NCBI GenBank assembly: GCA_027576995.1
Contig: JANBQC010000233.1
Location: 1-40,481 of the forward strand
From: Dimargaris cristalligena
Lineage: Eukaryota > Kickxellomycota > Dimargaritomycetes > Dimargaritales > Dimargaritaceae
Direction: 5' to 3'
Length of the DNA: 40,481 bases
Shown here: positions 9,096-30,600 of the stretch, piece by piece
How positions within the stretch are numbered: the first letter of the stretch is position 1
How the letters are laid out: every line of letters begins with the position of its first letter
Made by a program: the position numbers and the translations under genes
Notes under the pieces: model-generated
What the model was told of the DNA's origin: nothing
What the model saw: the letters and a program-made list of their open reading frames with translations, nothing else
Databases searched by the model: none

Positions 9096-11234
9096 ATGAG
9101 TTCCCAAGCCGATATCCAGCGCATCTCCCGCAAGTACCCCAAGTTGAAGCCTTGGGACATTGAAGCTCTTGTCCAGGAGTTCAACTCCTTCCACCTGGAC
9201 CAGAACGGTGCCTTGGACCAGCGCGACCTGGTCAAGGCCTGTCAGAAGGTGGAAAAGGACAAGGACTACGATCAGATTCGTACCGCCATCCGGGACATTA
9301 ATCTTAATTCCGCCCGTGGGGTCGAGGTTGAGGAGTTTGTTGAGGTAAGTAACCAACCCTTTCATGGAGTCGTACCCTGAATATGGTGTAGCGCTCCCGT
9401 ATCATTTCGTATCAACTGGTGGTAGTAGCCACTACTCGCTTGTTTAGTCCTTTAGAATCAGTTATTGCGGATAATTCTGTCCTCTGACACTGCCATGGTG
9501 TGGATGTGTGTATTCATCACCGGTTATTATTCCCGTCCCGTTTTACCCACCGATCACCTTCTCTGCTTGCCGACCGTATAGATTGTCGCCAACCTGCGCT
9601 CCAATGTCGCCAAAGCCGAAAACACCTTTGCCGGCCTCCACAACAAGAAAACAATCACCGTGATGGGCTCCAACACCAACACCGCGCACTCTATGAACGA
9701 GGATGAAAAAGCCGAATTTGTCATCCATATCAACCAGACTCTGGCTGGCGATAAGGACATTGGGTCCCGCATGCCGATTGACGAAAACACCATGCAGGTC
9801 TTTGACGAGTGCCGGGATGGTTTACTGCTCTCCAAGTTGATTAACCACGCCGTCCCCGGGACCATCGACGAGCGGGTGCTGAATCGCGGCAAGAAACTCA
9901 GCCCCTTCCAAATCATTGAGAATAACAACCTGGTGGTCAACTCCGCCAAGGCCATCGGCTGCAGCGTCGTCAACATCGGGTCCCAGGATCTGATCGAAGG
10001 ACGGGAACACCTGATCCTGGGCCTCATTTGGCAGATTATCAAGATTGGGCTCCTGGCCAAGATTGACATCAAACTCCACCCAGAGCTATACCGCCTGTTG
10101 GAGGAGGACGAAACCCTGGAGCAGTTCCTCAAGCTTCCCGCCGATGCCATTCTGCTGCGCTGGTTCAACTACCATCTCAAGGCGGCCAACTGGAACCGTC
10201 GGGTCAGCAACTTCAGCACCGATGTCAAGGATGGTGAAAACTACACGGTACTGCTTAACCAGCTGGTGCCCTCCCAATGTTCACGGGCGCCCCTGCAGGA
10301 GTCTGACCTCTACCGCCGCGCTGAACAGGTCCTGCAAAACGCGGACAAGATCGGTTGCCGCCGCTACCTGTCTCCCAAGACCCTGGTGAACGGAAACCCT
10401 AAGCTCAACCTGGCCTTTGTGGCCCACCTGTTCAACACCCACCCCGGTCTAGAACCCCTGGCCGAAGGGGCCGAAAAGGCCGAGCTGGATGAGTTGCTCT
10501 TCAACAACACCCACGAGCGCGAGGCCCGGGCCTTCGCCCTGTGGCTCAACAGTTTGGGGGTAGACCCCTTCGTCAACAACCTGTTTGAGGACCTCAAGGA
10601 CGGGCTGCCCCTGCTGCAGGCCTTCGATAAGGTGCATCCGGGTACTGTTAACTGGCGCCGGGTCAACAAGAACGCGAGCACCAGTCGGTTTAAGCAGGTG
10701 GAGAACACCAACTACGTAGTTGATCTCGGCAAGGACCAGCGCTTCTCACTGGTGGGTATCCAGGGTGCCGATATTACCGATGGGGTGCCTACTTTGATTC
10801 TGGCCCTGGTCTGGCAGCTTATGCGGGCCCACGTGGTGCAGACCCTCAAGTCGCTTAGCAAAAACGGTCGCGAGGTTACGGACCAGGACATGGTGAAATG
10901 GGCCAACGAATGCGTGCGCCGTAACGCGGCCTCCAACCAGTCCTCCGGATCGATTACCAGCTTCAAAGACCCTTCGCTCCGCAGCGGCCTTTTCCTCGCC
11001 GACGTCCTCAATGGCCTCCAGCCCGGAGTGGTGGATTATAGCATGCTGACCCGCGGGGTAAGCGAAGAGGATGCCAAGTTGAATGCCAAGTACGCCATTT
11101 CCGTGGCCCGTAAGCTCGGCGCCACCATCTTCCTGTTGCCCGAGGATATTGTTGAAGTGAAGCCCAAGATGATTCTCACCTTCATTGGTAGTTTGATGGC
11201 TCTGGACAAATCCGGCCAGATTGCCCGTCGTTAG
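9096..11234 (+). CDS. SAC6: Fimbrin/plastin, actin-bundling protein (two exons)
   Basis: Fimbrin crosslinks actin filaments in cortical actin patches and supports endocytosis and polarity. Exon 1 is 9096-9344 and exon 2 is 9582-11234, joined in phase 0 across a 237-nt intron (GTAAGT...TATAG), giving 633 residues, close to yeast Sac6. The N-terminal headpiece (about 20-85) has two EF-hand-like helices with degenerate loops: His33 stands at loop position 1 of the first hand and the second has a misplaced Gly, so calcium binding is doubtful. Four calponin-homology domains follow at about 121-241, 267-371, 395-504 and 512-625, forming the two actin-binding domains. Typical CH motifs are visible, such as DGLLLSKLIN, KDGENYTVLLNQL, LKDGLPLLQAFDKV and the repeated LALVWQLMR or LGLIWQIIK helices. 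Codon third positions are strongly GC-rich, consistent with high expression. The ATG at 9096 follows a C-rich leader and matches family N termini. Confidence 0.95.
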
Positions 11235-12602: not shown

Positions 12603-14318
12603 CTATTTCCAAGGTTCCAATCCCGAGTTGCAGTATCTGAATAGTTCGTACATTTTCTCATCCACCGGGTTATTGTACCTAAGTTTGAGCAGGGTGACAG
12701 CCCCGGCTTGGTCTCCCTTTTTAATGCCAAACAATTCTTCGGCGGCCGGGGTCTGTAGCCGGATGCGTCGCGCTTGGGGATCCTGTAAGAACTTCACATA
12801 TTTGTATTGATCCCAAGACAACACTATCGAAGCCCGCGTGAGGTTGGGGTGGTCTTCCCCGTTGACGAACGCCGCCATAATGGCTCGGGCCCGCTCCCTG
12901 ATCTTATCATCGCTGGGGTCCCAGGGTTTGAGATCACTTAGGGTATATTGGATACCCTTCCATTTCGTGAGCCCGGTATTCCACCAGGGGTTTTTCCTAG
13001 ACGTTTGGGTCGGATCCGCTGTCGTAGCAGGCAGGTACTGGTCCAGATTCATGATAATTTCGCAGATGCCCTTGGGCAACTGGTTGGGATCATAATTAAT
13101 TGAGTACCCCGAGTCACTCGCGGGAGTGATTTTCAATTGGGAAGGACCGGTGGCGGCGCTGGTGGCCGTTGTAGAACCAACAGTTGGTACATTCGGTTCC
13201 TGGGGGCGCGGTAAATACACTTGGTCTGATGTAATTTGGCCATTATTCTGCTGTCCCTGGTAGGCGTTTTTAGAAGGCATTTGATTAGCTGGGACGCTCG
13301 GTGCTTGATGGGGAAGAGGTTGGGGCTTAGGCGAATTATTTCCTTGATTTGGCGGATTTTGGGGATTTTGCTGCTGGACATGGTAGGCGGTTTTAGGAGG
13401 CATTTGATTAGCCGGGACACTCGGCATTTGAGAGGGAAAATATTGTGGCCCGAAGTTATTATGACCTTGGTTTGGCGGAATTTGAATATTTTGCTGCTGG
13501 GCATGGTAGGCAGTTTTAGGAGGCATTTGATTAGTTGGGACGCTCGGCATTTGAGAAGGAAAAGATTGTGGCCCAAAGTTATTATGGCCTTGGCTTGGCG
13601 GATTTTGGGGATTTTGCTGCTGGACCTGGTAGGCGCCGTTATAATCAACCCGTTGGTTATACTGGGCGCCCGATGCTTGAGGGGGAGCTTGAGGTGGTCT
13701 GAAGTTGGAATAATACCCTTGGTTGGATACAGTATGGCCGTAGTTTTGTTGTCCCTTGTAGGCGTTGCTGATATCAACCAGTTGGTTATACTGGGCACCC
13801 GACGCTTGAGGGGGAAGAGTTTGCGGACCAAGGTTATTTTGCCCTTGTAGAGGCATAGTCTGACCGTAGTTTTGCTGTTCCTGGTAGGCACCTTTATAAT
13901 TAGTCTGTTGATTATAATGGGTACTCTGTGTTTGAGGCGGAACTTGTGGTGGCCCGGAGTTATAAAAATGCCCTTGGTTTGGTGCAGTCTGGCCGTTGTG
14001 CTGCTTTCCCTGGTAGGCAGTGTTGTCATTAGCCTGTTGGTTATACTGGGCACTCAGTGGCCGGGGGGGAAGTTGTGGTGGTCCGGAGCTATAAGAGTTC
14101 CCATGGTAAGATGTAGTTTCACCGTTGTGCTGCTGTTCCTGGCTGGGGCGGTTGTATCCAATCGGTTGACTACTTTCGACACTGGATATTCGAGGAGGAA
14201 GAGGAGGTGGTCCGGAATTGTCAAACCAAAAAGGAGGTTGGCCTCGAATTTTTTCGCCAGTTCCATGGACGAAGGAAAGCCAACTTAAACTTAATACAAT
14301 TACCGCGCGCATGGTCAA
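12603..14318 (-). CDS. Secreted repeat protein 1 with conserved two-cysteine C-terminal domain
   Basis: A 571-residue protein in one exon; I do not recognise a known family. Residues 1-19 form a signal peptide (basic start, hydrophobic core, SFVHG before the likely cleavage). Residues about 36-365 are a Q/N/P/Y-rich tandem array: the dipeptide AY recurs at 101, 144, 186, 229, 270, 311 and 352, so the unit is 41-43 residues. A linker rich in T/S/A follows. The C-terminal domain (about 417-571) starts KGICEIIM and ends YCNSGLEPW; Cys419 and Cys563 are 144 residues apart and are shared with the three minus-strand proteins downstream, together with the QYKYV and LLKLRY motifs and MYELFRYCN. Function unknown; extracellular or wall-associated by inference. 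The ATG at 14318 is chosen because it places the signal peptide at the extreme N terminus. Confidence 0.8.
   Translation of the reverse strand: MTMRAVIVLSLSWLSFVHGTGEKIRGQPPFWFDNSGPPPLPPRISSVESSQPIGYNRPSQEQQHNGETTSYHGNSYSSGPPQLPPRPLSAQYNQQANDNTAYQGKQHNGQTAPNQGHFYNSGPPQVPPQTQSTHYNQQTNYKGAYQEQQNYGQTMPLQGQNNLGPQTLPPQASGAQYNQLVDISNAYKGQQNYGHTVSNQGYYSNFRPPQAPPQASGAQYNQRVDYNGAYQVQQQNPQNPPSQGHNNFGPQSFPSQMPSVPTNQMPPKTAYHAQQQNIQIPPNQGHNNFGPQYFPSQMPSVPANQMPPKTAYHVQQQNPQNPPNQGNNSPKPQPLPHQAPSVPANQMPSKNAYQGQQNNGQITSDQVYLPRPQEPNVPTVGSTTATSAATGPSQLKITPASDSGYSINYDPNQLPKGICEIIMNLDQYLPATTADPTQTSRKNPWWNTGLTKWKGIQYTLSDLKPWDPSDDKIRERARAIMAAFVNGEDHPNLTRASIVLSWDQYKYVKFLQDPQARRIRLQTPAAEELFGIKKGDQAGAVTLLKLRYNNPVDEKMYELFRYCNSGLEPWK
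13224..14213 (-). repeat. About eight coding tandem repeats of roughly 126 bp
   Basis: The DNA encoding residues about 36-365 of secreted protein 1 is built of degenerate repeats of 41-43 codons. Each carries an AYxxQQ block, an N/Q/G block, an N-x-GPQ-like block and a PP/PS-Q-x-S-x block. The last three full units (near residues 229-352) are the most alike, with unit lengths of exactly 41, which suggests recent expansion at that end. Confidence 0.8.
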
Positions 14319-15929
14319 GAAATATAAGCATGCACGGTTGTAGAGAAAACAGAGAAACGTTTACAAAGTTGAACAGGGTATGCAGCCAACAGGTTAAATC
14401 AATGAGTGGCGGGTTCTGGGGGATAGGCGATACGCCCGCGTTAAATAACTGGACCAATATAAGAGCGGTCTTAAAAAAAACGTCAAATAGTGAAGGAAAT
14501 GGTAAATTATACCTATTACGTTGGTTTTTATCATTGGGGTTAGGTATGGCCGTATATATATATATATATACATCTAATTCTAGAAGGTCAGCAACAATTT
14601 CGACTATGCTCTGTTCCCAAATCTGGGCTTTCTTCAATGGTGTACCGTCGCACCCGCCAGACGTACCGTATCAGGCAAACCTATTCGATTGATTTGAAAG
14701 GTAAATAAGTATAGGAAGCTGAAACGGGGGGGGGGGGTCTCGAAGAGGTTTTTTTCGTAAAGGGACAGAACTATGCCTGTCCGCTCATCACTTGGCCAAG
14801 TGCGATTATTCCCATAGCCACTGAAGCAAAGCTGTGGTCTCTAGGAGCCCCACTAAAATATGATCATTGGTGGTGCGATGGCTTTGAACCTTCGACAGCG
14901 TCGTACAGAACTCCCCCAGTGCTTCGAATATAAGCACAAAAGGAACGACCGGCCTCCATAGCGACGCTTCGGCTTTTGCAGTCTCAGCCAGTGGGCTAGC
15001 CTAGAGACGGGGAGGTCTACGAATAGCAGACAATCTGCCTGCCACCTTTTATTCACTGAATCTCCCGTTCGATACCGGCTGCAAAAGCTAGACCAACCAA
15101 AAAGGAGGAAGACGGGGCGTATAATTAGAATGGTCGGCCGGTATCACATTCTTCCCTTCCTATGGCTGTCTGGCGCTTCTTGTACTCCTTCAATGTGAAT
15201 GACACCCCCTTCCTTCCCCTTCCCCCTCCTCTTCCTCCCCTTCAACTGCTCCGTATCAGTCCCCTTCGCTCCCACAACCGTTGACGCCCCACCCACCCCC
15301 TCACGTTGGGGTTGCCTTTCGGCAAATATTATCGACCTCTATTTGAAGAGCATCAGTAGATTAAGTTTATTTTATTATAATAAAATAACGCAGCATACCT
15401 CTTATCGACGACCCATTCAACCCCCTATGGCTGTTATTCTTTTTTTAAAAAAACAAAATTGAATCCGTTTGGAAGAAATTCATCATTTCGGTCGATGGGC
15501 GTCAAAGAGGGAGTGAAGCTCAGATTGGCTACTATTAACTCATCCCCAGAGAGCATTTGTTCGTCGGAATGGGGTCTGACCCAGTACCATGTTAAGGGTG
15601 TTTCAAGTCCAATACCTGCAAAATTCTGTTGCAGTTTAAACTAAAGGGGTCAATGGGCCCGCTCATATTAGTGACTGCCAAGTGAACATGTACTTATATA
15701 GATAGATAATTGGTGAACATTGCAGCCTGGCAGTCCAGAAAAAAACAAAAACTCACACCTTTGGTAAATGCATCTAGGCAATTATTGTTAATAAAACTAC
15801 CCAACCGACACCCCCCCAACCTTTTCGCCACCTACAACCACACCAAGGATGTAGTAAGCTATAATAATATAATAAGATACAATTAGTAGACTCGTATTCA
15901 TTCCCCTAGATTTAGTGGTTTAGTTTTAG
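14319..15929. other. Spacer between secreted genes 1 and 2
   Basis: Probably the promoter of secreted gene 1 on its left. It holds an alternating TA tract at 14551-14571 and a G10 run at about 14727-14737. ORFs here lack domains and I see no gene. A tRNA-like T-arm at about 14875-14900 (minus) does not close into a cloverleaf. Confidence 0.45.
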
Positions 15930-16173
15930 GCAGTTTGGCCTGGTTTTATTAGAGTATATATTTTTTAAATAGTTACAGGGCTGCCAGTTTCTTCAACCTC
16001 CATGTCTAATGCCGTCCAAATATTAAAGCCCATAGCCAGATTTTGAGAGAGAGAAAAATATTAATAGGTTATTCAAGGGTTATACAAAAGTATGACTTTG
16101 CCACAAAAAAAAAGTCTTTAAGCTAGTACAACAAAAACGTCGAGGGAAATTTACTCCATGGTCGCTTGTTATC

Positions 16174-17172
16174 CTACCAGGGATCTAAATCGGGGTTGCA
16201 GGCCTTTAGGAGTCCGTACATGGCGCGGTCATGTGCGCTCCCATACCGAAATTTAAGCATAGACCTCGCCACATCACTAGTCGCTTTTTTGTTTACCCAC
16301 AAAAAGCTGCGTTTGGTGGTGGGTTTCAGGCTGATACGCCGCGTTTGTATATTGTGCACTATAATTACATACTTATATTTACGTAAATCCACCTTATGCA
16401 TTGACGGGGTGATACTGGGGTCAGGCCGGTGTTGCATGTAGGCCTCCATAATCTGGCGGACCCTCCGGTTGACCTCGCCAGGCTTGGTTCGATGGCGAAT
16501 CCGGGTGTATAAGTGGGTCGCATAGGCCGCCACCATGTGGACCGGTCCCGTTAGCGAATTGCGTAGTTTCGACCCCATGGACTTCCCCTTGGTCAAGGAC
16601 CTGTATTGATTACCCTCCATTATGTCTTCACAGACCCCTCGGAGCATCACGGACTCAGTGGACGCCGCATTAGCCAGGCCCGAACTATGGTACAAGTCAT
16701 TGGCGGCTTGAGTGTTGGGATTTGGGGGAGTAGCCGAATTGGATGACCCCAGACTAAACCTGGCATCCGGCACACTTGGTACCGTTGCAGCGCCCATTGC
16801 CAATGGGTAATATGTTCCCGATGCGGTGGTGGGTGTGTTGGGTTTATCATAGACCGACTCCAGGTCAGGTTGCCCATAAATAGACGGCGCGTTGGGCTTC
16901 TGATAAATATATGCCTCGTTAGGATTCTCATAACTATACGGCTCGTTAGGCTTTTCATAAATAGATGCCCCGTCGGGCTTCCCGTGAAGAGACGGTTCGC
17001 TGGGTTGATAAACATTGGACCGAGGAGGAAGGGGTTGTGGAAAATGCGTTGAAATAGGAAATGGGGGCCCTAGTGGCTCTACTGAGTACCTTTGGTTGTT
17101 GGGGAAAGGGTGCCCGTACATTCCAATGACGGAAGGTAATAATAACGAAACCAAAATAATGGCAATACACAT
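16174..17172 (-). CDS. Secreted repeat protein 2 with conserved two-cysteine C-terminal domain
   Basis: A 332-residue protein and close tandem paralog of the one at 18938-20056. A signal peptide (residues 1-17, hydrophobic core IAIILVSLLLP) is followed by a P-rich segment ending LPPR, then a decapeptide array at about 61-115 with the ideal unit IYEKPNEPxS, here quite degenerate. A linker leads to the C-terminal domain (about 179-332): GVCEDIM at its start, RQIMEAY, LRKYKYV, MLKFRYG and CNPDLDPW at its end. Cys181 and Cys325 are 144 residues apart, as in proteins 1 and 3. No known domain recognised. Single exon; the start at 17172 gives a complete signal peptide aligned with the paralog. Confidence 0.85.
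   Translation of the reverse strand: MCIAIILVSLLLPSVIGMYGHPFPNNQRYSVEPLGPPFPISTHFPQPLPPRSNVYQPSEPSLHGKPDGASIYEKPNEPYSYENPNEAYIYQKPNAPSIYGQPDLESVYDKPNTPTTASGTYYPLAMGAATVPSVPDARFSLGSSNSATPPNPNTQAANDLYHSSGLANAASTESVMLRGVCEDIMEGNQYRSLTKGKSMGSKLRNSLTGPVHMVAAYATHLYTRIRHRTKPGEVNRRVRQIMEAYMQHRPDPSITPSMHKVDLRKYKYVIIVHNIQTRRISLKPTTKRSFLWVNKKATSDVARSMLKFRYGSAHDRAMYGLLKACNPDLDPW
16828..16992 (-). repeat. Degenerate 30-bp coding repeats in secreted gene 2
   Basis: Five or so 10-codon units, related to the array in secreted gene 3 but more diverged (for example IYEKPNEPYS, then YENPNEAYIY, then QKPNAPSIYG). The first unit, SLHGKPD, is shared with gene 3. Confidence 0.75.
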
Positions 17173-17787
17173 AGTCGAATAATGTATTAACGTTAGTAAT
17201 CACTAAGATTAAAGAACGGCGTAGCTTAATTGAGCGAGTTCATGCGACCAGTACCAGGTGTGTATTCCATACGCTAAAATAACTAAATAGGACGGGCTAT
17301 AGAGAAAAAATAACCCGTTTATCAGTAATATCAGGTATGTAGAAAATAGAATGAACGTGTCACTTGAAGCTATATACGATGAATAATTGCCGTCGGAAAT
17401 TGGGAAGTCGGTGAAGAAAAGGGTCTCCCGATAAAGTCGATTGTAGGGCTTGGCAAAATACATACTTTCGGACTCCCCACACCCGCGCCTACATATATAT
17501 ATTCACATATATACCTAGCCGGCCAAAATTTACTCACTGCTTTAACCATAATTATCGGCCAAGCTGTCGGACATTTTGAAAGCTACGGCTATGGTAACTC
17601 AAAAGGTCTATCTACAATTGGACTGACGTTCCCAATACCTGATAAGCCCTTCATTATCACATTGTCCAAAACTAGCCAGCGATATTATTGGTCTAATTAG
17701 TGGTCAAATAGATCGAGCCCTTCGAGAAGGTGTAATACAAGGCTCAGCGCCTCAATAGTAAGTATGGGGATAGGGAGATATGGTAGG

Positions 17788-17811
17788 GTACCTTCGCTGT
17801 GAAGGAGGTAC
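17788..17811. promoter_or_regulatory. Conserved hairpin upstream of secreted gene 2
   Basis: GTACCTTC, loop GCTGT, then GAAGGAGGTAC. Two pairings compete: GTACCT with AGGTAC, or CCTTC with GAAGG. The block 17764-17825 is nearly identical to 20647-20709 upstream of the paralog, about 0.6 kb from each start codon. Confidence 0.5.
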
Positions 17812-18331
17812 TCTCGCAGTGGGGACTTCAATTAACCTGGTGGAAAGATGTGTAGGGCTAGATAACAGGGGTGTCTCTTTCTACCGACAACCCTTCGGAT
17901 ATTGGCAAGCCCCACCTGGCCGGGAAAAAAGATGGAAAGGATGAGTAGATTGAGTATTCAATGCTGCCCTAGCGTCCATGGGTCAAGAGTTGCGTTGCCC
18001 TGTACTGTACGGTCCACCTTGGTTGGCCCACTGGCTGTGTTCCCTCCCTTCAGCCTTATCACTCATACTATTGTATTACAGTCCAAACTAATAGGGCCCA
18101 CATTATTATTACGGATAGCTTGCCTTCGAGTAGGACGGAGTTTGCTAATTTTAAGGAACATATAATATTTAATACACTATTTAAACGATTAAACTAGTGC
18201 CAAATAGAAGATGGTCTCCTCCCAGTGTGTCCATATCGACACCAGGAAACTGTCGAAGAATGAGTTAGTCGATAGCTATGTTAAGCCTGATGAGAATGCG
18301 CGAAGCGTTGGTTAGGCTACCAGGCTTCCGC

Positions 18332-18366
18332 AGTGACTAGCATTGCTAAGTAGAGCAATTAGTCGC
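18332..18366. repeat. Conserved imperfect palindrome upstream of secreted gene 2
   Basis: Left arm AGTGACTAGCATTGCT (18332-18347) pairs imperfectly with right arm AGCAATTAGTCGC (18354-18366). The same structure recurs at about 21219-21254 with a different loop, so the arms are conserved better than the loop. Confidence 0.5.
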
Positions 18367-18937
18367 CAAACGCTCTAGCTATTTAGATGGTTAGGGGAGG
18401 CATTCGGCTTGAAAGGTCAATAGTCTTTGGATGGTTTTGGTAAATATAATGGTAGGGTCGATTGGGTGTCAATTATAAACGGGGGGGGCGTCCGCTATTA
18501 AATGTAGGTAAAATTAAGCGCGGCTGTATAGTTTTACCAAAATTATATAAATCTGCTTAGAGGTGTTATATCTATTTAAAGTCCGTAATACCTACCTAGT
18601 CAACTGTTTTGGCAATTAAACACTCTAATTGGTGGAACCCACCCGTATCAAGGTAGGTTTTTATCTATTGACCCCCTTCCCCAATGTTGTAAAACATGAT
18701 AATCACATGATTCACTCGTGGCTTTTGAGGGCCGTATTTTTATTAGAGTATACTTTTTTGTAAGAGATGCTGGGCTGTCCGTTTCTTCAGCCTCTATCTC
18801 CAATGTTGTTAAAAAATATAAATGCCCGTGTAAATTGCGAGAGAATCAAAATTGACAATAAGCCATTCAAGGGTTATACAAAAATTCGAATTAGCCGAAA
18901 TAAATAAAACAACATTTAGGTTGATACAACAAAAAGC

Positions 18938-20056
18938 CTAGGGCAGTTTTCCCAACGGCCATTTGGGATCCCGCATAGGGCCTAAATTAGGGTTGCAGGT
19001 CCTTAGGAATTTATACATGGTACGGTCATTCGCATTTCCATACCGAAACTTAAGCATAGGCTCATTCATACAATTATACATTGTGTCCTGGACCGGAAAA
19101 AAACTGTCTTTGGTGGTGGATTTCAAGACAATATCATTCGTACGCTTATCGAGCGATAGAATTACGTACTTATATTTATGCAGATCCACACTGTGCATCG
19201 ATGGGATGATGCTGGGGTCAGACCGGTGTTGTACGTAGGCCCCCATAATCTGGCGGGCCCGCGGGTAGACCTCGCCAAGCTCCTTACTTTGGCTAATCCG
19301 TGTGTGGAGGTGGGCCGCATAGGCCGCCAGCATGTGGGCCTGGCCCGTCAACGAATCGCGGAGTCTCGACCTTATGGACTCCTCATTAGTAAAGGTCAGG
19401 TATTGAATAGACCCCATCATGTCTTCGCAGACCCTCTGGAGCATCCCGGACTCGGGGGAAACTGGGCTATCCTGGTATGAACTGTGGCCGGAGCCGTCGC
19501 TGTTGTTGTCGATTTGGGTGTTTACATTTAGGGAAACGGCCGAATTGGATGCCCCCAGACTAAACCCGGTATTGGTCCTACTCGGTAATGCAGGCGCACC
19601 CATTGCCGAGGGGTTCAAGCTGTCCGATATGGAGGGCGTATTGGGTTTATCATAGATTGACTGCTGGTCAGGCAGCTCATAAATTGACGGCTCGTTGGGC
19701 TTCTCATATACAGACGGCTCGTTGGGCTGCTCATAAATTGACGGCTCGTTGGGCTTCTCATATACAGACGGCTCGTTGGGCTTCTCATATATAGACGGCT
19801 CGTTGGGCTTTCCATAAATAGACGACTGGTTAGTATTCTCGTAAATATATGACTTGTCGGGCTTCCCGTGAAGGGACAGTGTGCTGGGCTGATAATCATC
19901 GGGCCGAGGAGGAAGGGGTGGTGGAACGGGTGACGGAATTGGAAATGGAGGCCATGGTGTCTCTACTTGGTGCATTTGGGGGATGGGGAAAGGGTACCTG
20001 TTCATCCCAGTGGCGGAGGATAAGAATAGGGAAACCAAAACAATAGCACTATTCAT
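18938..20056 (-). CDS. Secreted repeat protein 3 with conserved two-cysteine C-terminal domain
   Basis: A 372-residue protein and tandem paralog of secreted protein 2. The signal peptide (1-17, hydrophobic core IVLVSLFLSSATG) is followed by a short P-rich segment ending LPPR at 48-51. A regular decapeptide array of about eight units occupies 61-143, with ideal unit IYEKPNEPS preceded by I or V. The C-terminal domain (about 208-372) carries RVCEDMM, RQIMGAY, LHKYKYV, MLKFRYG and FLRTCNPNLGP. Cys210 and Cys354 keep the 144-residue spacing. It has an extra cysteine at about 329 and a C-terminal extension beyond the end of proteins 1 and 2. Function unknown. Start at 20056 chosen by alignment of signal peptides. 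Confidence 0.85.
   Translation of the reverse strand: MNSAIVLVSLFLSSATGMNRYPFPIPQMHQVETPWPPFPIPSPVPPPLPPRPDDYQPSTLSLHGKPDKSYIYENTNQSSIYGKPNEPSIYEKPNEPSVYEKPNEPSIYEQPNEPSVYEKPNEPSIYELPDQQSIYDKPNTPSISDSLNPSAMGAPALPSRTNTGFSLGASNSAVSLNVNTQIDNNSDGSGHSSYQDSPVSPESGMLQRVCEDMMGSIQYLTFTNEESIRSRLRDSLTGQAHMLAAYAAHLHTRISQSKELGEVYPRARQIMGAYVQHRSDPSIIPSMHSVDLHKYKYVILSLDKRTNDIVLKSTTKDSFFPVQDTMYNCMNEPMLKFRYGNANDRTMYKFLRTCNPNLGPMRDPKWPLGKLP
19628..19876 (-). repeat. 30-bp coding minisatellite in secreted gene 3
   Basis: About eight tandem 10-codon units. Neighbouring units are nearly identical at the DNA level, with TCGTTGGGCTTCTCATA recurring on the plus strand, and differ mainly at I/V, G/E and K/Q positions. 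Because the unit is a multiple of three, copy-number change keeps the frame. Confidence 0.85.
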
Positions 20057-20670
20057 GGCCAGATAATATATAAAAATAAGGAATTACTAAGATACCGAGA
20101 GATGCGACGTAGTCAACGTGGGCGACTTTATGTGGCCAGCACCAACAGTCAATTACAGGTCAAAATAACTAAAATGGACGGTCTGTTGGGATAAGGTAAC
20201 CCGTTTATGAGCAATATTAGTGCTGTAGAAAGAATAGTGGGCGTGGCACTTGAAACTATATACGATGGATAATTGCCGCCGGAAATTGGGAAGTCGCTAA
20301 AGAAAAGGACTTCTCGAGGAAGATGATTATATGACCTGACAAAAACCGCATAATCGGACTCTCTATACTCACTTCTCTATATATACACATATATACCTAG
20401 TCAGCCTATTTCCAACCGCTGCTGTATTCCCAAACGTCGGCCCCACAGCTCGACCTTTTGAAAGGTACGGCTATAGTAACTCAAAAGGTCTGTCTACAAT
20501 AGGACTGACGTTCCCAAAACCTGATAGGTCCTTCATTATCTCATTGTCCGAAAAAAAATATGAGACGCTATAGGTTTAATTAGTGGCCAAATTATTCGAG
20601 CCTTTAGAAGCGGCGTAATACAAGGTGCACCACTCCAATAGTAAATAGGGGGAAAGGGAGATATGGTAGG

Positions 20671-20694
20671 GTACCTTCGCTGTGAAGGAGGTAC
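20671..20694. promoter_or_regulatory. Conserved hairpin upstream of secreted gene 3
   Basis: Second copy of the GTACCTTC-GCTGT-GAAGGAGGTAC hairpin found at 17788-17811, identical in arms and loop while flanking DNA has diverged. Confidence 0.5.
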
Positions 20695-21218
20695 GCTCGT
20701 AGCGGGGACTTCGCTTGAACAGACGTTAAGAATTGATAGGGGAAGAAAAAAAAAGGTGCTATTTTTATCTAGGGACCTTCGGTTATTGGTAAGTCCCACC
20801 TAGTCAACTAAAAGCGGCGAAATATGAATAATTTGACTGTTCCATGTTGCCCTTGCTTCCATGGGGCAAGGGTATTGTTGACCTATACTGTACGGTCACC
20901 TTGGTTGACCCATGGGCCGTGCCTTTCCACAGCCTTATCACTCATACTACTGCATTACAGTTCAAACTAATAGGGCCCGCCTTATAATTACGTAAGGGCT
21001 GTCTTCGAGTAAGGCGGGATTATATAATTTAAAGGAAAACGTAACACTTAAAACACTATTTACACGAATAAACTCGTAGCATCTAGAAGGCCGCCTCCTA
21101 ACCTCCTCCCTGCGCGCCCGTATCGACAACAGGAAATTGTCAAATAATGGGTTCGTAGATAGTCAGGGTAGATCTGATGGGGATACGCGAAGCATTCGTT
21201 AGGCTGCTAGACTTTCGC

Positions 21219-21254
21219 AGTGACTAGCATTGCCTAAACGAAGCAATTAGTCGC
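21219..21254. repeat. Conserved imperfect palindrome upstream of secreted gene 3
   Basis: AGTGACTAGCATTGC and AGCAATTAGTCGC arms match those at 18332-18366, with the intervening loop changed. Confidence 0.5.
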
Positions 21255-21397
21255 CAAGTGCTCTTGCTGTTTAGGAGGTTAGGGGGGCACTGTGCTCGAA
21301 AGGTCAATAGTCTTTGGAGGGTTTTGTTGAAAATATAATAGAAATGTTGATTGGGTGTCAAATATAAGCGGGGGGTGGGGGAGGGTGGAAGAGAGCC

Positions 21398-21407
21398 NNN
21401 NNNNNNN
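21398..21407. other. Assembly gap (10 N)
   Basis: Ten undetermined bases inside the second duplication unit, flanked by C/G-rich sequence and followed by the long G tract at 21452-21499. True gap length is unknown. ORFs reading through it are meaningless. Confidence 0.95.
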
Positions 21408-21451
21408 CCCCCCGTGTTTGTGGTGTCTTGAGCTAAAAAAACAACAAATCT

Positions 21452-21499
21452 GGGGGGGGGGGGGGGGCGGCCCGGGGGGGGGGGGGGGGGGGGGGGGGG
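21452..21499. repeat. Long G homopolymer tract
   Basis: Nearly continuous G over 48 bases, broken only by a few C. The matching site in unit 1 (about 18481) has only eight G. It could be a real expansion with G-quadruplex potential or an assembly artefact next to the gap. Confidence 0.8.
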
Positions 21500-22034
21500 C
21501 TCCTTCTATTATATGTAGGTGAGATTTAACGCGGCTGTATAGTATAATGAACAATATATAAATATAATAATAGGCGGCATATATATTTTTAATCTGTAAT
21601 ACCTGCCCAATCAACCCCATTTTCCACTAGACGGCCTGACTGGGCCTCACCCATATCAGTTCGAGCTTAGCTATTGACCTCTTCTCCCTACTTCATGTTA
21701 TTTTGTGCACATTTGGGCTGCTCCAATTGATCGTGTTCCGCCATTGTCTTTTCACCTAAGTTTTGAAAAAACCTATAGACCGTATTTTTAATTAGCTTGG
21801 CGATGGGTAAGCTTGGTGTAAACGCCGATAGCTTGCGCGAGGCCAGTTATTGCCGATGAGAATACTATGCGTGAAGACTCCAGTATTTATTGAAAATAAA
21901 ATGGGGACATATTTTATATACACTGTATTAAATAAAACGACTGCTAGTTTGTGCTAGTATTAATATTTTTGGATAGGAATTGTACGGGATTTCGAAGTTG
22001 CGATGTTATTTAAACAAATTGGCTATGAACCAGT

Positions 22035-23069
22035 CTAGATATCTGTATTGCAGGTTCTCAGAAACTCGTACATGGTTTTGTCCAAGGGGTCATCCAAAAA
22101 TTCAATCATTGAGTCTTCCAGGGCATTATAAGTTTTTCTGCCCACATGGACGTAGTCGTCGGGTTCGACCGGGATCAATTTAGCCGAATACCCGTTCTCG
22201 CCCCAGTCGAATTTTAAGTGCATAGATCCGCGAGTATCCATTTCTTTTTCCGGTCCGATGAGGTAGGGACTTGAGACATTTGCGCTATAGGCCTTGAAGA
22301 TATTTTTCAAGCGGGATTGGGCATTCACCACGGTGGCGTCCTTACCAAAAAGCAAACCGGCGTAGTTTATGGCGAACCGGGCCGACTTGACAACACCTTT
22401 TGGCGAAAACCATTTTCGGAATTTTGAGCTGGATTCGGAAGCGTCCCGCTTGGCCACGACCAATTCCATGGTCTCGTCACACCATTGGGCCGCCAAGGGC
22501 ATAGTTTCCCTCGAAATGGTAGCGGCGCCGTAAACGTAAGCCGCCGACGGGGAATTCGGGCGAGTTTGTTCGGCCAGATACTTGGGTGTTTGTCGAACGA
22601 CTTGAAGGGCCGAGCTAGGGTTATAGGCGGTCAGTGGCGGCGACGGTGGTTGGTTAAGCGGAGAAATGTGAGGATTGGTGGCTTTGAAGTTGTCCTCTTG
22701 TCCTGTATTTTTGTCTGTTTGGGCTATAGTGGAAGAGGGTTCGCTATTACGCCGTGATTCGGTACCAAGCGGTTTGGTCTTGGGGGGTTCACTGTAGGGC
22801 CACGTGGCAACGCTTGGGTTCGTTGAAGCTATAGTTTTCCCATAATTGGACTTGTTGGAATTGAATTCGCCATATTGTTCGTCGTCACTTGAATAATACT
22901 GACTATTGGCAGATGACCAGTCGCTGTACTTATCGACGTCATATTTGTCGCTAAATGGGTTGGGGCTAAGGAGTTGGTCTCCTATGGAATACTGTTGCTG
23001 GGAAGTCAGCGCCAAAGCACCGCAGGATGAAGCGGCAAGGGCCAAGAGAGCAATGTTACAGGCACGCAT
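22035..23069 (-). CDS. Secreted protein 4 with diverged two-cysteine C-terminal domain
   Basis: A 344-residue protein. Residues 1-21 form a signal peptide (basic start, ALLALAASSCGALA). The middle (about 22-190) is S/N/P/Y-rich and disordered-looking but lacks clear tandem repeats. The C-terminal domain (about 196-344) is the most diverged of the four: it opens QWCDETM, has the basic helix ending LKNIFKAY, and closes with KTMYEFLRTCNTDI. Cys197 and Cys340 are 143 residues apart, one less than in the others. The ending MYEFLRTCN nearly matches MYKFLRTCN of protein 3. Position and strand continue the cluster. A decayed copy of its start and upstream region lies at 26042-27660. Function unknown. 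Confidence 0.8.
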   Translation of the reverse strand: MRACNIALLALAASSCGALALTSQQQYSIGDQLLSPNPFSDKYDVDKYSDWSSANSQYYSSDDEQYGEFNSNKSNYGKTIASTNPSVATWPYSEPPKTKPLGTESRRNSEPSSTIAQTDKNTGQEDNFKATNPHISPLNQPPSPPLTAYNPSSALQVVRQTPKYLAEQTRPNSPSAAYVYGAATISRETMPLAAQWCDETMELVVAKRDASESSSKFRKWFSPKGVVKSARFAINYAGLLFGKDATVVNAQSRLKNIFKAYSANVSSPYLIGPEKEMDTRGSMHLKFDWGENGYSAKLIPVEPDDYVHVGRKTYNALEDSMIEFLDDPLDKTMYEFLRTCNTDI

Positions 23070-25450
23070 AACTTTGGGCGGGAAACAGCGAATTTGCCTT
23101 TAGGAGGTTGGTCTTTCGAGAATAGTACACTATCCAAAAAGACAGCAGACAAGGGGGCCAATTGGGTCAGCGAATTGAATAAGAGAGTTGGGGAAATTGC
23201 AAGCCCACAATAAAAGACAGTAATAAAAAAACATACTATATCTCTCAACAGTCTGGGAGAAAGATGGGCGTTTATATATACAGTGAGACGAACGAAGCAT
23301 AGCCCATTTGGCCGTTCAATTGCACCCCCCAAACGTAAGATATAAACCCTTGCTTTTTTCTTTAGGCGGGTTTTCGGACCTTATTATTGGATGTCCGGAT
23401 TAGTTCCACAACAGCTGATGACCGATAAAAGAGCTGGAAGTTACACAAAGAGAATGTTCGGGTTTTCTGGCGGTATGGCGGTGACAGTCCAAGGCATGTT
23501 TTAAATTGGTTTAGCGAGTAAGGGACTCTAGTATGGATATCGGCAAGTCCCCCAAGACAAGGGTGTGTCATTACCCTTTTTCAACGGTCTACGGTGCTAC
23601 ATGCGAATGCTGCCGATTGGTCGTTAACGTGGTCCATTGATTAGATGAAAAACCAAAGGGGTAATTGTCATAAGAGCACCTACGTAGTTACAGAAGCCAT
23701 ACGGCCTTCTTTTACTCTAATCACACCCATCGAGCTGGGCCGGGGGGTTCGACCTTGTAATATACATTTCAATAATATAAGCCCATTGCAGTATGTTAAT
23801 CTGGTGGGGAGAGCGGCATAAGTTTCCTCAGTGTACCTATCCCTCTGGTCCCTTGCAATCGATCCGCCGGTATATCCCGGAAGGCCCGGGTCACCCTTTG
23901 TGCTCAAGGAAAGCGCAGGCGAAGGGTTTTTTCTGTCCGGTGGCTTCCATTGGGAATTCTAATAGGCCCGTTATCCGGTGCCGAATAGCAAGCGGGTCCA
24001 TTATTGTGGAGTTTTACAGGGTAATTCTGTCGATTATTGGACTCATGTTTCATAAAAGGGGGCGAGGGTAAAATAAATATCTTCTCCGACGGCAGTTTCT
24101 TTTTTACGACCTACACCAATATTCTGTATGATTCAAGCCAGGTTGAGCTTCATTAATTGCTCAATTATATATCCGGATAACCGTTGACCCACTTTGGTCT
24201 GTGGTTATATGCGGAAAAGGACCCCAGCATGGATTTCTTTGGAAAAGTCTATGGTAGGGAACGCGGGCTTTTCTCATATTATACGTTTGTCTCGTCTTCG
24301 AAGCAGTGCTTGTAAATAGTAGTATTGCTCCCAGCTTGAGACTGTCGCCTGTTTATTGACTCGTAACAGGCGATGGGCCGCACTTAACCACCCTCTCGTA
24401 GGTTGTTAATTCTTGGGTTATCTTTATAACTCTTATTATACACATTTGTTGCCAAGCCGATTTCAATGGGTTATGGGGCTTTCAGGAAACATACATATGC
24501 TTAAAATTTGAAATGTCAGTTTAAGTTGCCCATTATTTCATTGAAAAACCGCTTGCAACTTGGTGGGGTATTTATGTGAAGACAATACTAGAAGAGCGTT
24601 CTATAGATAGTGAATATTGGCATCAGTTAGTGCCCATTGGTATCCGTAAGACTATGGGGGAGTCAGAGGAGACTCCGGGTCAACTGCGAAATATAGTGAC
24701 GGAATAATAATAGGTGGTGTTAAGGTTAAGTAGTAGGTTATTGAGGCGACAGGTGTATTCATAGAAAAGGGGTTCTGGTACAATAAGATCTAATATGGGG
24801 GAGTGGCAAGGATATACCCTAGTCCTATTGCTGCACTTAGGCTAAGGAGGGTAAGTGTTGCTAAGACTGTCGAGTAGGCAAATACAGATAGATCGTTATA
24901 AAAGAAATATATATTGACAAAAACCATATCCGAATTAGTATGTGTTATATTTATTTTTATCCCAGGTTCAGGGTGGTTTTAACTCACAGTTGCGCTATTA
25001 GGCCGGATTTTCTGGTGGGACAGGTAGATTGGCTATATACACTGATAGCCTGGGTTAAGCCATTAACAACTAGAGTCAATATTATGCAGCCAAGACAGAC
25101 CACTATCCATCATAGGCAAGAGGCCAATATCACTCCCCCACAGTACCCCTAGCCCAAGTGAAGGAGATTTGTTGGACAAAGGTGTTGGCCATCCCCTCCC
25201 CCTCCTGTTAGCAAAGGACAACCTCCTCCCAACAGCTCAATAATAGCCACTCACCTCAGAGGAAAAAACTATATGGCCCAAATGGCCAACTATTGTAATG
25301 AGGTTAAACAAAATATTATTTACATTATTACATTTTTGTGCTCAATATAATCACCTTTTTATCTGCCTGCCTAACTTGGGACTCTTAGTTGTTTCTTATA
25401 GTTATTTGTTCTCTACTCGGTCAGCTAGGTTACATTATGAGGTGGGTATA
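23070..25450. promoter_or_regulatory. Upstream region of secreted gene 4 and spacer
   Basis: The first 0.9 kb (23070-23950) aligns with 26230-27660, so it defines the promoter-side part of an old duplication. A perfect inverted repeat TCGCCTGTT/AACAGGCGA lies at 24345-24353 and 24365-24373. From about 25100 rightwards CpG becomes rare. No gene is supported. Confidence 0.45.
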
Positions 25451-26036
25451 TATCACCTGGGTTTACCACTCTTAGTCCATCAAGAGTCCCAAGGATAGGC
25501 TTCTAATGGTAGGCAGGGCTTATACTTGGCCAAGCAGGCTACTAGCATCAGGTATGGGGCATGGTACTAACTAATAAAGGCTTAGGCAATTGGTTATACA
25601 AGGGATGTGCAGTGGGCACACTTATGGGTCAGTATAAGGGGGTGTGTGTATATAGAGTATATTAGAGTAAACTAGGGGGGTAAGAATAAGCTAAGGAATT
25701 GAACCAGTCCTAAGGGGGCCTGGTTATATATATGTGGGGATAACTCTATAGGGAGGTCCCAAGGGAAGACTATGAGTAACTAAGGTATATAGTAAAAATA
25801 GGCCAACCAGATGGCTGCTAGTATCTGGAAGACTCTTATGGTAACTGGAAGAGTCTTCAGATCAGCATGCTGAGTAATTAGTATGAAGAGCTGGAGTCCG
25901 GAAGGGGAAGGGTTATATGATATATGGTGATCCCATAGTGCCGGGGGTGACCATGGGAAGGTTAATATGGTACTATAAGGCCTAATAAGGGTGGGTAGTA
26001 TGGTGTCTGGATTAAGGTGGATTAGAAGGGCTGACA
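25451..26036 (-). mobile_element. Solo LTR A (retrotransposon relic)
   Basis: A 586-bp segment that is the reverse complement of 26295-26873 along nearly its full length. Ends are decayed: TATCACC where the partner predicts TGTTGCC, and GGCTGACA where it predicts GGCCAACA. The flanks GTATA (25446-25450) and GTATG (26037-26041) look like a 5-bp target-site duplication with one change. No internal retroelement sequence remains. It is CpG-depleted and more diverged from a TG...CA consensus than LTR B. Confidence 0.8.
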
Positions 26037-26041
26037 GTATG

Positions 26042-27660
26042 CTATCACTTGTATAATCCTGACTATTGGTTGATGGCCAGTCATCAGATTTATCTACAGT
26101 ATACCTGTTGCTGAATGTGTTGGGGCTGGGGAGTTAGCCACCTGTGGAATACTGATACTTAGAAGTCAGTGGTAAAATACCAAAGGATGAAGCGGTAAGG
26201 ACCAAGAGGGCAATGTTACAGGCATGCATTACTATGGGTGGGAGATGGTGAACTTGCCTTTAGAAGGTTGGTCTTTTAATAATTGTATGATATCTGTTGG
26301 CCCTCCTAATCCAACTTAATCCAGACCTAATGATTACCATCCTATTTAGGCCTTATAGTACCATATTAACCCTCCCATAGTCACCCCCAGTACTATGGGG
26401 TCATCCTTTATTATGTAACCCCACTCATTCAACCCCAATGCTTTACACTCCAAACACTCAACTTACTGATCCAAGACTCTTCCAGTTCCCATGAGAGTCT
26501 TCCCGATATGAAGTCATCTGGTCAGCTTCTTTACTTCCATACCTTAGTCTTAGTAGTATTCCCTTAGGACCTTCCACTAGAGCTGCCCCTGTGTATATAT
26601 AACCAGGCCCCACTGGGACTGGTTCCATACCTTAGCTTATTCATATTCCCCTATTTACCTCAATAAACTCTATATATGCTCACCCCCCTGTACTGACTAG
26701 TAAGTGTGCCTACTGCATATCCCTTACATTTACCTACATTTGTCCTTTATTAGTTAGTACTACACTCCCATCCTAATACTAGTAGCCCACTTGGCTGAGC
26801 CTAAGCCCCACCTACCATTAGAAGCCTATCCTTGGTACTCTTGATGGACTAAGAGTGGTTAACCCAGGCAACAATATCCAAAAAGACAGTAGACAAGGTG
26901 GCCAATTGGGGGCAACAAATTGAGTAAAAGAATTGGGAAAATAGCAAGCCCATAATAAAAGGCAGTAATAAAAAATAATATGGAAACACTCAATAGCCAT
27001 GAAGTAAGAGGGACATTTATATATTCAATGTGAAAAACAATGTGCAGTCCATTTGGCTGTTCAATTGCACCCCCAACCTTAGGCTGTAGACCCTGTCCAT
27101 TTTCTTTAGGCAGGTTTGCAGACCTTGGTATTGTATGTATGGATTAATACCATGGTTGCTGGCTTTAAATCAAAAGCAACAAAGTCACGCCAAGGAAATA
27201 TTTGAGCTTTCCAGCAGCTGTGCAGGATAGCCCAAGACATGCTTGAAAATGGCAGTATGAGTATTGGACTCCATCATTGGTAGTGCATTGTCTGATGATG
27301 AGGGTGGATTATAATCAGGGTCCATCTTTCCATGGAACCATGTACGGTGGGCATTGCTTCATTGTAAAGGCAGTACATTGGCTAGATGGCAAACGAAAAG
27401 AGGGGATGATCATGGGGCACCTACATAGTACCATAGGTCACCTACCTATCTGTTACTCCACTTGCAACCATTGAACTGGGCCATTGACCTGGCTTTTTAA
27501 CATCCATCTCAAAGGCTGGGGCCCATTGAAATATGTTGAGCTGTAGGGTCCGGGTTTTTTCCCCTATGTGTACCTATTCTCTCTGCTATTTTCCGTCCAT
27601 CTGCTGGTATACCTCGGAGGGTTGGGAATGCCAGCTGAGTTTATAGAAAGCGCAAGTGAT
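26042..27660 (-). pseudogene. Decayed duplicate of secreted gene 4 (start and upstream region), split by an LTR
   Basis: 26042-26289 aligns with about 22887-23132 and 26879-27660 with about 23132-23950. The remnant start codon is at 26229 and the signal peptide is still readable (opening MHACNIALL against MRACNIALL). Codon 32 is a stop (26134-26136): CAA of the parent has become TAA. Most differences look like C-to-T or G-to-A, often at CpG. Solo LTR B lies inside it, and solo LTR A bounds it on the left, where the rest of the coding region is absent. It is an old, inactive duplicate. Confidence 0.8.
26295..26873 (+). mobile_element. Solo LTR B (retrotransposon relic)
   Basis: A 579-bp element with termini TGTTGG...GCAACA and a perfect 5-bp target-site duplication ATATC (26290-26294 and 26874-26878). 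A TATA-like box (TATATATAA, 26594-26602) is followed by AATAAA at 26662-26667, which sets the plus orientation of U3-R-U5. It interrupts the homology between the gene 4 upstream region and its duplicate. The absence of gag-pol and the clean duplication indicate a solo LTR left by recombination. The superfamily (Ty1 or Ty3 type) cannot be decided from an LTR. Confidence 0.88.
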
Positions 27661-30600
27661 GGAGTTTTTCTACCCGTCGGCTTTTACTGTGAATTCTTGT
27701 AAAGACATTCGCCAGTGGGGAATGGTAAGTGGGATAGTTGCTGCGGGCTTTTTTGGAACTTTTGTCTCCATTTTCTAATTTATAGACCTTGAGTGGAAAA
27801 AGGGTTGAAATGACTATATACTTGGATAGCCATTTTTTTAAGATAATGTGTTCTATTGAACTATCCTTCTTTTTTTGAATATTACACATGTTGTCCAACA
27901 GACATTCCATCAACACTGACCCCATTTTGGACTGCCAGCATATCAGGTCTAATTGCCACCCAGCTTGGGTGTGCCCCTCCAATAAGGATATGATCCCCAA
28001 TTATGAATTCACTCCGTCATCGACCCATGTATACGGGATTCTAACAATCCGGACTAGATAGTAATGTGGAGGATGTGGGGGGGCTAACTTCCTGTCTAAT
28101 GGACGGGTTGGCCTAGGCCCGCTTGATTGGCCATCGGGGCCCACCGTGCCATTAATAAATAACAATGTGATCGGCGAACTCCTGAGTTGGTCAGGTCACT
28201 CGGTCCTTATATCAGCCGATATCAATAACACGGTAAATACTGACAATATATTATAGTAGGCTCGTTTCTCGTGCTGTAGGGTTGGAGGAGAAAACAATCA
28301 AGGCCTGGTTTGGCCGGTTCCGATCAAACGTTACATGCGCCATATACACGCGGGTTTGTTTTTTCATAAAGAGTTCGTAAACTTTGACGATCATGATGGT
28401 GGAAGGGTGGTACTTATCAAACTCCGAGCCAATGTGGAAACATTTCCACCTACCTGACCATTGTATCTTCATGGGAACCGGAGTATGTAAACAAACCTGA
28501 TCGAGTCCATGGCCATGGGAAACACTGCCGGACACTGAATGTATCCCTGTGTCTCAGCTCCTTTACTCCACTCTGCCAGTAAATACGTTTCACGAATGCC
28601 TACGGAACTACCATGTGGCAGCGGTGTTTGTAGTCACCTACCCCACACCCCCATTAATTTTCAAAAGCCACGACGTGATAAAATGGACGTTGGTGGATAA
28701 TCAAAATTCCGTAAATATTAGTCCCCAAAAAGCCGAGCTGACTTCCTTGCGTTCCCCGAACTCCTTGATCAATATCCTTCAAGTAGTTACGGTGCCTCTA
28801 TTCTTACACTATTCACTTTAAACATTTATTGGGAAGAAACCCTTGGAGCAAAACTTTTCACGGCCCTCTATTAGTTATAGAACGCTGTGGCCAAATGGCA
28901 GTTTGGGTTTTGGTTTTGTGGATTTTTTTTTGGGGGGGGAGGGGCGGAGGGATTCCAAAGCCGCTGGCCTGAATCTGAGACTTAAATACAAGTCTCCGAC
29001 AAGTCAGTGGCGAATTCCCACTCCTGCATAATTGTTTGCTTAAAAGACTGAAAAGCATGAGGTAAGGAGGAGGGTTGCGAACTGGTCCTTAGTTAATCTC
29101 TATTAACACGACATCCCCCTCCCTTGAGGCAACTGAAGATAGGCTATATAGCCAGTGAATATTACTTCACGCCCCAATTTACCCGGCATACTAATACCGG
29201 ATTACAATACTTTGGCTAGAGTCCCAGCTCGTACATGCTGTGCTGGCTCGCACCCCAACCATTGCCATGATACCCATAAGTTTCTCATAAACGCGCATTT
29301 GGGCAAAACGGCCAATACCGCCGTTATATTCGTTTAAGCAACAGTCCCAGACAACCATGGTAATATTAGTCATATACCCACCCTCCACTAAGTCACCTCT
29401 TTTTTTCTCTCTCTTTCCCCGCTGGGAAGTTGCTCGTAATGGTTAGCTTTTCGAATTTCAAGGACTAGTTACACCCACCAAACCTGTCTGGAATGGACTC
29501 TGTTTGGTCAATTTCACGCTGCATATTATGTGGAGAGGAGTATCAACCGATCAGATATCTCGCTTTAATTAATGAGGCAATCAGTGCCCATTATCTCGCT
29601 AGACAGTCGATGATTCCTTTTGGCAATTGGGGACATTGGGCCGACTAGTTCCAGCGATGATCAATACCAATTGAGGTGATACGAAAATCCGGACTTGGAA
29701 GTCCAACACTTGCCGGCTTGAATAGATGCCTTGCATTAGTCACTTACACTATTCCCTGAAACCAAGGAAAGGAGAGGTGGTGGAGGAGAGGACTGGCGAA
29801 ACGCGGGAATAGGGTTTGAAATTCAAGGGGCGAGGGGTAGGCTGTGTTAAGGAGAGAGAGAGAGGGAAAATAGAGAAGCAGAGGATGCACGGATAAAGGT
29901 GGCGGGGGCAAGTTAAAGAAACACGACTTGAAAAAAGCAAGAAATGCTGGGGTTTACTGCTGCCCCCCTGGTAAATGAATGACTGAGTTTCTTGGGAACG
30001 GCTTTTGTGCTAGGAAGCAGATGAAAGGGCGAGGGGGAATGAACTCGATGGTTTAATTCCATTGACTTGCCCTAATCGGGGAATATAGGACGAGGGGGCT
30101 GGCTACTAGGTCGATTTTAATACACCCCCCCCATACATAACTTGAAAAAACAGGCTCTCTAGTGCCCAAAGCAGGAGCTCTGACTGCAGGAGATCAAAAT
30201 CCGACAATTGATTGAAGTAGTAGAGATGTGGTACACAGCTGGGTAGTTGCTGGAAGGAAACTGGAAACCCATACCCCTGTTTTTAGACCTCTTGCTCGTA
30301 TTGAACATAGGATGTTGTACTGTATAATTTAAGGTTGCGAAAAAAGTGAAATTATATAATCGACAGTGGATTACTTCCGGTTGATAATGGGCCGATTAGC
30401 TCTTTAAGGCTTCATTTCCCATTTTTGGTTTTATTAGAAGGAGAAATGGGGGGGAAGGGGGTAAAGGTGTGTGCCCTCCAGCTTGGTGTATTTACGACCG
30501 TGCGGTAGACTGTTTTTTTTTAGCTAAGCTACCCCCGTCTTGCCAGGTTAACTACTTTATACGCTAATGGCCCTACCAAAATAACCGCCGGACAGCATCG

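What the first reader, a model, noticed from the sequence alone, without database searches (positions are those of the whole stretch)
12603..23069. Cluster of four secreted proteins sharing an unrecognised C-terminal domain with two cysteines at fixed spacing
Four consecutive minus-strand genes (12603-14318, 16174-17172, 18938-20056, 22035-23069) encode signal peptide, variable low-complexity middle and a C-terminal domain of about 150 residues. The domain opens with C-E/D-x-x-M, has an (R)xIM/F-x-A-Y/F helix, KYKYV in three copies, L-K-x-R-Y in three, and closes MY-x-[FL]-x-x-CN. The two invariant Cys are 144, 144, 144 and 143 residues apart, which suggests a conserved disulfide. The middle regions are unrelated between subgroups, as if a fixed domain were joined to fast-changing displays. 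I know no family matching this.
Basis: partly seen in the sequence, partly recalled or inferred. Interest (0 to 1): 0.8.

Follow-up and report, generated by a model that had tools for sequence, protein, structure and literature searches.

The report
Orphan secreted protein family, mycoparasitic fungus
Four neighbouring genes of a fungus that feeds on other fungi encode secreted proteins that share a small, probably disulfide-closed domain with no known relative outside this species in our searches, which makes them candidate tools for the parasite's contact with its host.

Summary
Four intact minus-strand ORFs encode a signal peptide, a repeat-rich middle and a C-terminal domain of about 155 residues with two invariant cysteines 143-144 apart. 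A fifth intact copy, found afterwards on another contig, has the same plan, cysteines 143 apart. The genome matches Dimargaris cristalligena, an obligate mycoparasite grown on Cokeromyces. No Pfam model matches; three protein searches found only the window's own protein and two unnamed D. cristalligena proteins. AlphaFold gives the same order (three helices, five strands, helix) for two subgroups, with a disordered middle in g4; no PDB match stands out. The locus evolves by tandem duplication, repeat-number change, decay and repeat-element insertion. 'Fixed domain, fast displays' is only partly right: between the two closest paralogues the C-domain changes as fast as the middle, although all 8 differences between two near-identical copies of g1 lie in the repeats. 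Best reading: effector-like secreted interface proteins; function inferred, not shown.

The parts
12603..14312 (-). g1, 569 aa: signal peptide, P/Q/N-rich tandem-repeat middle (41- and 43-residue units), C-domain
   Evidence: ORF; repeats; hydropathy maximum at residue 1
12630..13064 (-). g1 C-domain core, C417 to C561
   Evidence: alignments
16174..17172 (-). g2, 332 aa: signal peptide, five 9-residue Y-x-x-P-N/D repeats, C-domain
   Evidence: ORF; repeats
16198..16632 (-). g2 C-domain core, C181 to C325; predicted order helix-helix-helix, five strands, helix
   Evidence: model (pLDDT 77.7, pTM 0.70)
18938..20056 (-). g3, 372 aa: tandem paralogue of g2 with eight 9-residue repeats
   Evidence: ORF; 51% to g2; repeats
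18995..19429 (-). g3 C-domain core, C210 to C354 (extra C329 inside)
22035..23069 (-). g4, 344 aa: in one subgroup with the contig C372 copy; middle predicted disordered
   Evidence: ORF; residues 1-189 pLDDT below 50; C372 relative
22050..22481 (-). g4 C-domain core, C197 to C340
15944..18604 (.). duplication unit A (g2 with flanks)
   Evidence: self-BLASTN; identity by part
18738..21615 (.). duplication unit B (g3 with flanks)
   Evidence: self-BLASTN; identity by part
26045..26287 (-). relic of a g4-like gene: 5' flank plus first codons only
   Evidence: 77.8% to 22885-23127; tblastn of g4 residues 1-95 at 25942-26229
26871..27697 (-). upstream part of the same relic, cut off from it by a repeat element
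   Evidence: matches 23127-23408 (77%) and 23632-23960 (64%)
26294..26868 (+). dispersed element in the relic's upstream DNA; by its flanks it runs 26295-26873, with TG...CA ends between two copies of ATATC (solo-LTR-like)
25456..26037 (-). second, inverted copy of the same element, next to the point where the relic's coding part breaks off
   Evidence: 77.8% inverted match; ends

Best explanation
These are effector-like secreted proteins of a mycoparasitic fungus. The signal peptide sends them out of the cell; the two invariant Cys, one in the first helix and one at the end of the last, form a disulfide that joins the two ends of a compact domain (three helices, five strands, one helix); the disordered P/Q/N/S/Y-rich middle is a spacer or display whose length changes by repeat number. 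They act outside the parasite cell or at its contact with the host fungus (Mucorales such as Cokeromyces), most likely by binding a host or wall component with the C-domain. Shown here: genes, homology, architecture, repeats, duplication and decay. Predicted: fold, disorder, signal peptide. Inferred: disulfide, site of action, binding role.
For: Five intact genes with an N-terminal hydrophobic maximum, no other strongly hydrophobic stretch and hydrophilic C-terminal tails, so no sign of a membrane or GPI anchor by hydropathy. Exactly two Cys after the presumed signal peptide in 4 of 5 genes. Same predicted order of elements in g2 and g4. Found only in D. cristalligena in three searches of 5.8 billion proteins; g2 gave no relative in prokaryote genomes or phages. 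Fast but constrained evolution: g2/g3 dN/dS 0.62, bootstrap 0.45-0.85. Birth and death: tandem duplication, 5 against 8 repeat units in g2 and g3, one truncated relic in the window, and two copies elsewhere (C52, C203) with stops in frame. The species is described as an obligate mycoparasite (PMC6784888; passages and sections 8 and 18 seen). In Blumeria, the RNase-like secreted family keeps its disulfide Cys pair under purifying selection while the members diverge (PMC9816061, passages seen).
Against: No expression, localisation or secretome data. No known effector fold was matched. The proteins are longer and more repeat-rich than typical small secreted effectors (recalled). Only five intact genes were found, a small family. 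dN/dS is below 1 and gives no sign of positive selection over whole genes. The protein search finds relatives only through shared 5-residue words, so lineage restriction may be overstated. A wall or coat role is nearly as good a fit.
Confidence: 0.48

Rival explanations
1. Structural proteins of the parasite's own wall, spore coat or adhesive matrix: the C-domain is a constant assembly or wall-binding module and the P/Q/N/Y-rich repeats are an extensible, cross-linkable spacer.
For: Tandem repeats of 9, 41 and 43 residues, rich in Pro, with Gln and Asn in g1 and Tyr in each g2/g3 unit; shared end domain; predicted disordered middle in g4; basic C-domains in g1-g3 (pI 9.0-10.5).
Against: No anchor signature by hydropathy, no KR or RR sites between the repeats of g1-g3, only two or three Cys, C-domains of g4 and C372 acidic (pI 5.7 and 5.3); the narrow distribution would be unusual for a general wall component.
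Confidence: 0.32
2. Secreted antifungal or killer-type proteins aimed at the host or competitors, with the C-domain as the active part.
For: Small predicted globular secreted domain with a probable disulfide; mycoparasitic life style.
Against: No match to a solved toxin by sequence (best E 0.35, a viral RNA polymerase subunit) or fold; a long disordered repeat region is not typical of killer toxins (recalled).
Confidence: 0.1
3. Genes with no present role: decaying copies or misread frames kept open by chance.
For: One truncated relic and two copies with stops in frame; g2/g3 coding DNA is no better conserved than the upstream DNA.
Against: Open frames of 332-569 codons in five genes, g2/g3 dN/dS below 1, Cys spacing kept at 143-144 despite identities of about 20% between subgroups.
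Confidence: 0.04

Closest known systems
RNase-like (RALPH-type) effectors of Blumeria
   Same: Lineage-specific secreted family of an obligate biotroph, fast sequence change around a conserved Cys pair (PMC9816061, passages)
   Different: No [YFW]xC motif in the first 45 residues (sequences); three helices, then five strands and a helix; long repeat region; host is a fungus
MAX effectors of Magnaporthe
   Same: Small disulfide-stabilised secreted fold shared by divergent sequences (PMC6414202, one passage)
   Different: Described there as a six-stranded beta-sandwich; here four helices and five strands are predicted
Repeat-rich fungal wall proteins and Kex2-processed repeat proteins (recalled)
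   Same: Signal peptide plus tandem repeats
   Different: No KR or RR sites between the repeats of g1-g3, no Pfam model at all, a dedicated C-terminal domain
D. cristalligena BJ085DRAFT_29949 and BJ085DRAFT_38249 (hypothetical proteins)
   Same: They are this family: 98% to g1 residues 153-569, and 99% to the C52 copy
   Different: The annotated start of the first lies inside the repeats, so it lacks the signal peptide; the second model joins exons across the repeat region; neither is named

Membership tests
Any Pfam-A family | Profile match | tested here: not met
   0 families at E<=1 for each of the four full-length window proteins; C372 was not scanned
RNase-like (RALPH-type) effectors | [YFW]xC motif within the first 45 residues of the full protein | tested here: not met
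   g1, g3 and C372 have no Cys there; g2 C2 and g4 C4, C16 have no Y/F/W two places before
RNase-like (RALPH-type) effectors | RNase-like fold | tested here: inconclusive
   No PDB match at E<=0.001 for either model; absence does not exclude it
MAX effectors | Six-stranded beta-sandwich with a disulfide | tested here: inconclusive
   Predicted order is three helices, five strands, helix in two models; no fold match stood out
Hydrophobins | Eight Cys in a fixed pattern (recalled) | tested here: not met
   Two, at most three, Cys after the presumed signal peptide
Kex2-processed repeat proteins | Dibasic sites between repeats (recalled) | tested here: not met
   KR/RR sites: none in the repeat regions of g1, g2, g3; one in the g4 middle, at 106, where no repeat array was found; KK and RK were not counted
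Cyclic-nucleotide-binding domains | cNMP-binding fold | tested here: inconclusive
Effector-like secreted protein family | Signal peptide and no other membrane segment | tested here: inconclusive
   Hydropathy only; no trained signal-peptide predictor was available
Effector-like secreted protein family | Lineage restriction and copy-number turnover | tested here: met
   within the word-based sensitivity of the search
Effector-like secreted protein family | Expression at the host interface and effect on the host | not testable with these tools
   No transcriptome or assay

The most novel reading that the evidence does not exclude
A new, fungus-on-fungus effector family with a fold not yet in the PDB: a disulfide-closed domain that binds a target in or on Mucorales hosts, joined to repeat-driven displays that vary between individuals of one species.
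Probability: 0.25. Interest if true: 0.7.

Novelty: new member of a known kind. Interest (0 to 1): 0.42.

Why it matters
Parasites that live on other fungi must act on a host much like themselves, and the paper on the D. cristalligena genome reports no orthologous gene that signals mycoparasitism across all its taxa (PMC6784888, passage). A small secreted family with a defined domain and a clean anatomy gives a concrete, testable candidate. Neither of the two database records of the family has a functional name; one lacks the signal peptide and the other skips the repeats, so secretome lists built on that annotation could miss it.

Full report
What is there. The window is contig C233 (40,481 bp) of an unnamed 27.09-Mb assembly in 779 contigs. 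Its protein g1 is 98% identical over residues 153-569 to BJ085DRAFT_29949 of Dimargaris cristalligena, on a 40,460-bp contig, and the copy on contig C52 is 99% identical to BJ085DRAFT_38249 of the same species. So the window is D. cristalligena or a very near relative, an early-diverging fungus of the Kickxellomycotina described as an obligate mycoparasite and grown with Cokeromyces recurvatus (PMC6784888, section 18).

The four genes are real open frames of 569, 332, 372 and 344 codons on the minus strand. Each starts with a hydrophobic N-terminus that holds the most hydrophobic 15-residue stretch of the protein, and none ends in a hydrophobic tail. Cys pairs lie 144, 144, 144 and 143 residues apart. 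The four C-domains share 13 invariant columns in a 182-column alignment, among them both Cys, M of C-x-x-x-M, R71, I75, A78, L116, D148, MY and CN (numbering of that alignment's first row). Homology is beyond chance for 9 of 10 domain pairs of five proteins against 1000 shuffles each; for g1-g4, 2 of 1000 shuffles reach the score.

More copies. Searching the own genome with the C-domains gave one further intact gene on contig C372 (L014:805-1806, 333 aa) with signal peptide, S/P/N-rich middle and Cys 143 apart. It aligns with g4 over 348 columns at 25% (E 9e-26), so the g4 and C372 middles are related, as are those of g2 and g3 (51% over the whole length). Two other copies, on C52 and C203, have stops in frame. 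The public gene model of C52 passes its stops by an intron of about 410 bp with GT and AG ends, so that copy may or may not be alive; no transcript was available. Inside the window a further, g4-like copy is only a relic: 26045-26287 matches 22885-23127 at 78% (5' flank and first codons) and 26871-27152 matches 23127-23408 at 77%; no match to the rest of the gene was found. Between and beside these two pieces lie two inverted copies of a dispersed element of about 580 bp. A genome search with one copy gave 45 matches, itself included, with 40 of 643 candidates scored, so the count is a lower bound. That copy shows TG...CA ends between two copies of ATATC, as a solo LTR would (read by eye).

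How the locus changes. g2 and g3 sit in two direct repeats, 15944-18604 and 18738-21615, 69-75% identical by part. Their repeat arrays hold 5 and 8 nine-residue units. g1 has units of 123 and 129 bp. Between the window's g1 and the public copy, 8 of 417 residues differ, all between g1 residues 250 and 304, in the repeats, none in the C-domain. This supports a variable display, but may be an assembly effect; the paper reports cell-to-cell polymorphism in this species (section 8). Against the idea of a fixed domain: between g2 and g3, dN/dS is 0.66 (0.41-1.19) in the C-domain and 0.58 (0.40-0.93) before it; the whole gene has 0.62 (0.45-0.85). The CDS is 73.8% identical and the upstream DNA 75.4%. 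So the whole protein changes fast under weak purifying selection, and what stays fixed across subgroups is the frame of the domain: the Cys pair, its spacing and about a dozen residues.

What it probably does. Inference: a secreted, duplicated, decaying, fast-changing, lineage-restricted family with a probably disulfide-closed domain, in an organism that must feed from a living fungal host, is best read as effector-like interface proteins (0.48). The main rival is a structural role in the parasite's own wall, coat or adhesive (0.32), which the repeats fit well. Present data do not separate them; timing and place of expression would.

Compared with the known. It works like, but is not shown to be, a member of the disulfide-stabilised effector families of plant-parasitic fungi: it lacks the [YFW]xC motif reported for the Blumeria RNase-like effectors, and its predicted order of elements differs from the six-stranded sandwich described for two MAX-type effectors. 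No Pfam family was found. I therefore call it a new family of a known kind. In the listings of my searches of the held papers I saw no work on it.

Noticed in passing
window 26294-26868 and 25456-26037: Dispersed element of about 580 bp, one copy with TG...CA ends and a 5-bp target duplication (solo-LTR-like), two inverted copies beside the broken g4-like relic; 45 matches in the genome with 40 of 643 candidates scored.
   Followed up: partly
window 640-1437 and 3056-3814, minus strand: Two neighbouring similar genes with what looks by eye like one membrane segment and with a RING-H2 finger (Pfam zf-RING_2, E 3e-13 and 4e-11), another tandem pair in the same window.
   Followed up: partly
window 8982-11234, plus strand: Fimbrin-like gene: CH domains in the main exon (Pfam CH, E 4e-84) and an upstream open frame that by eye resembles an EF-hand exon.
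   Followed up: partly
window 36832-38496, plus strand: Intact bZIP transcription factor gene (Pfam bZIP_2, E 3e-6) with long low-complexity flanks.
   Followed up: no
L002:559-1656 (contig C52): The public gene model skips about 410 bp that correspond to the coding repeats of g2/g3 and here hold stops; its ends are GT and AG, so a repeat region may have turned into an intron, or the model only avoids the stops.
   Followed up: partly
window 18328-18486: The best conserved 200-column block of the g2/g3 duplication (85% identity) is upstream DNA, more conserved than the coding region; a possible shared control element.
   Followed up: no
window 21452-21499: A 48-bp run of G (91% matches) between g3 and g4.
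   Followed up: no
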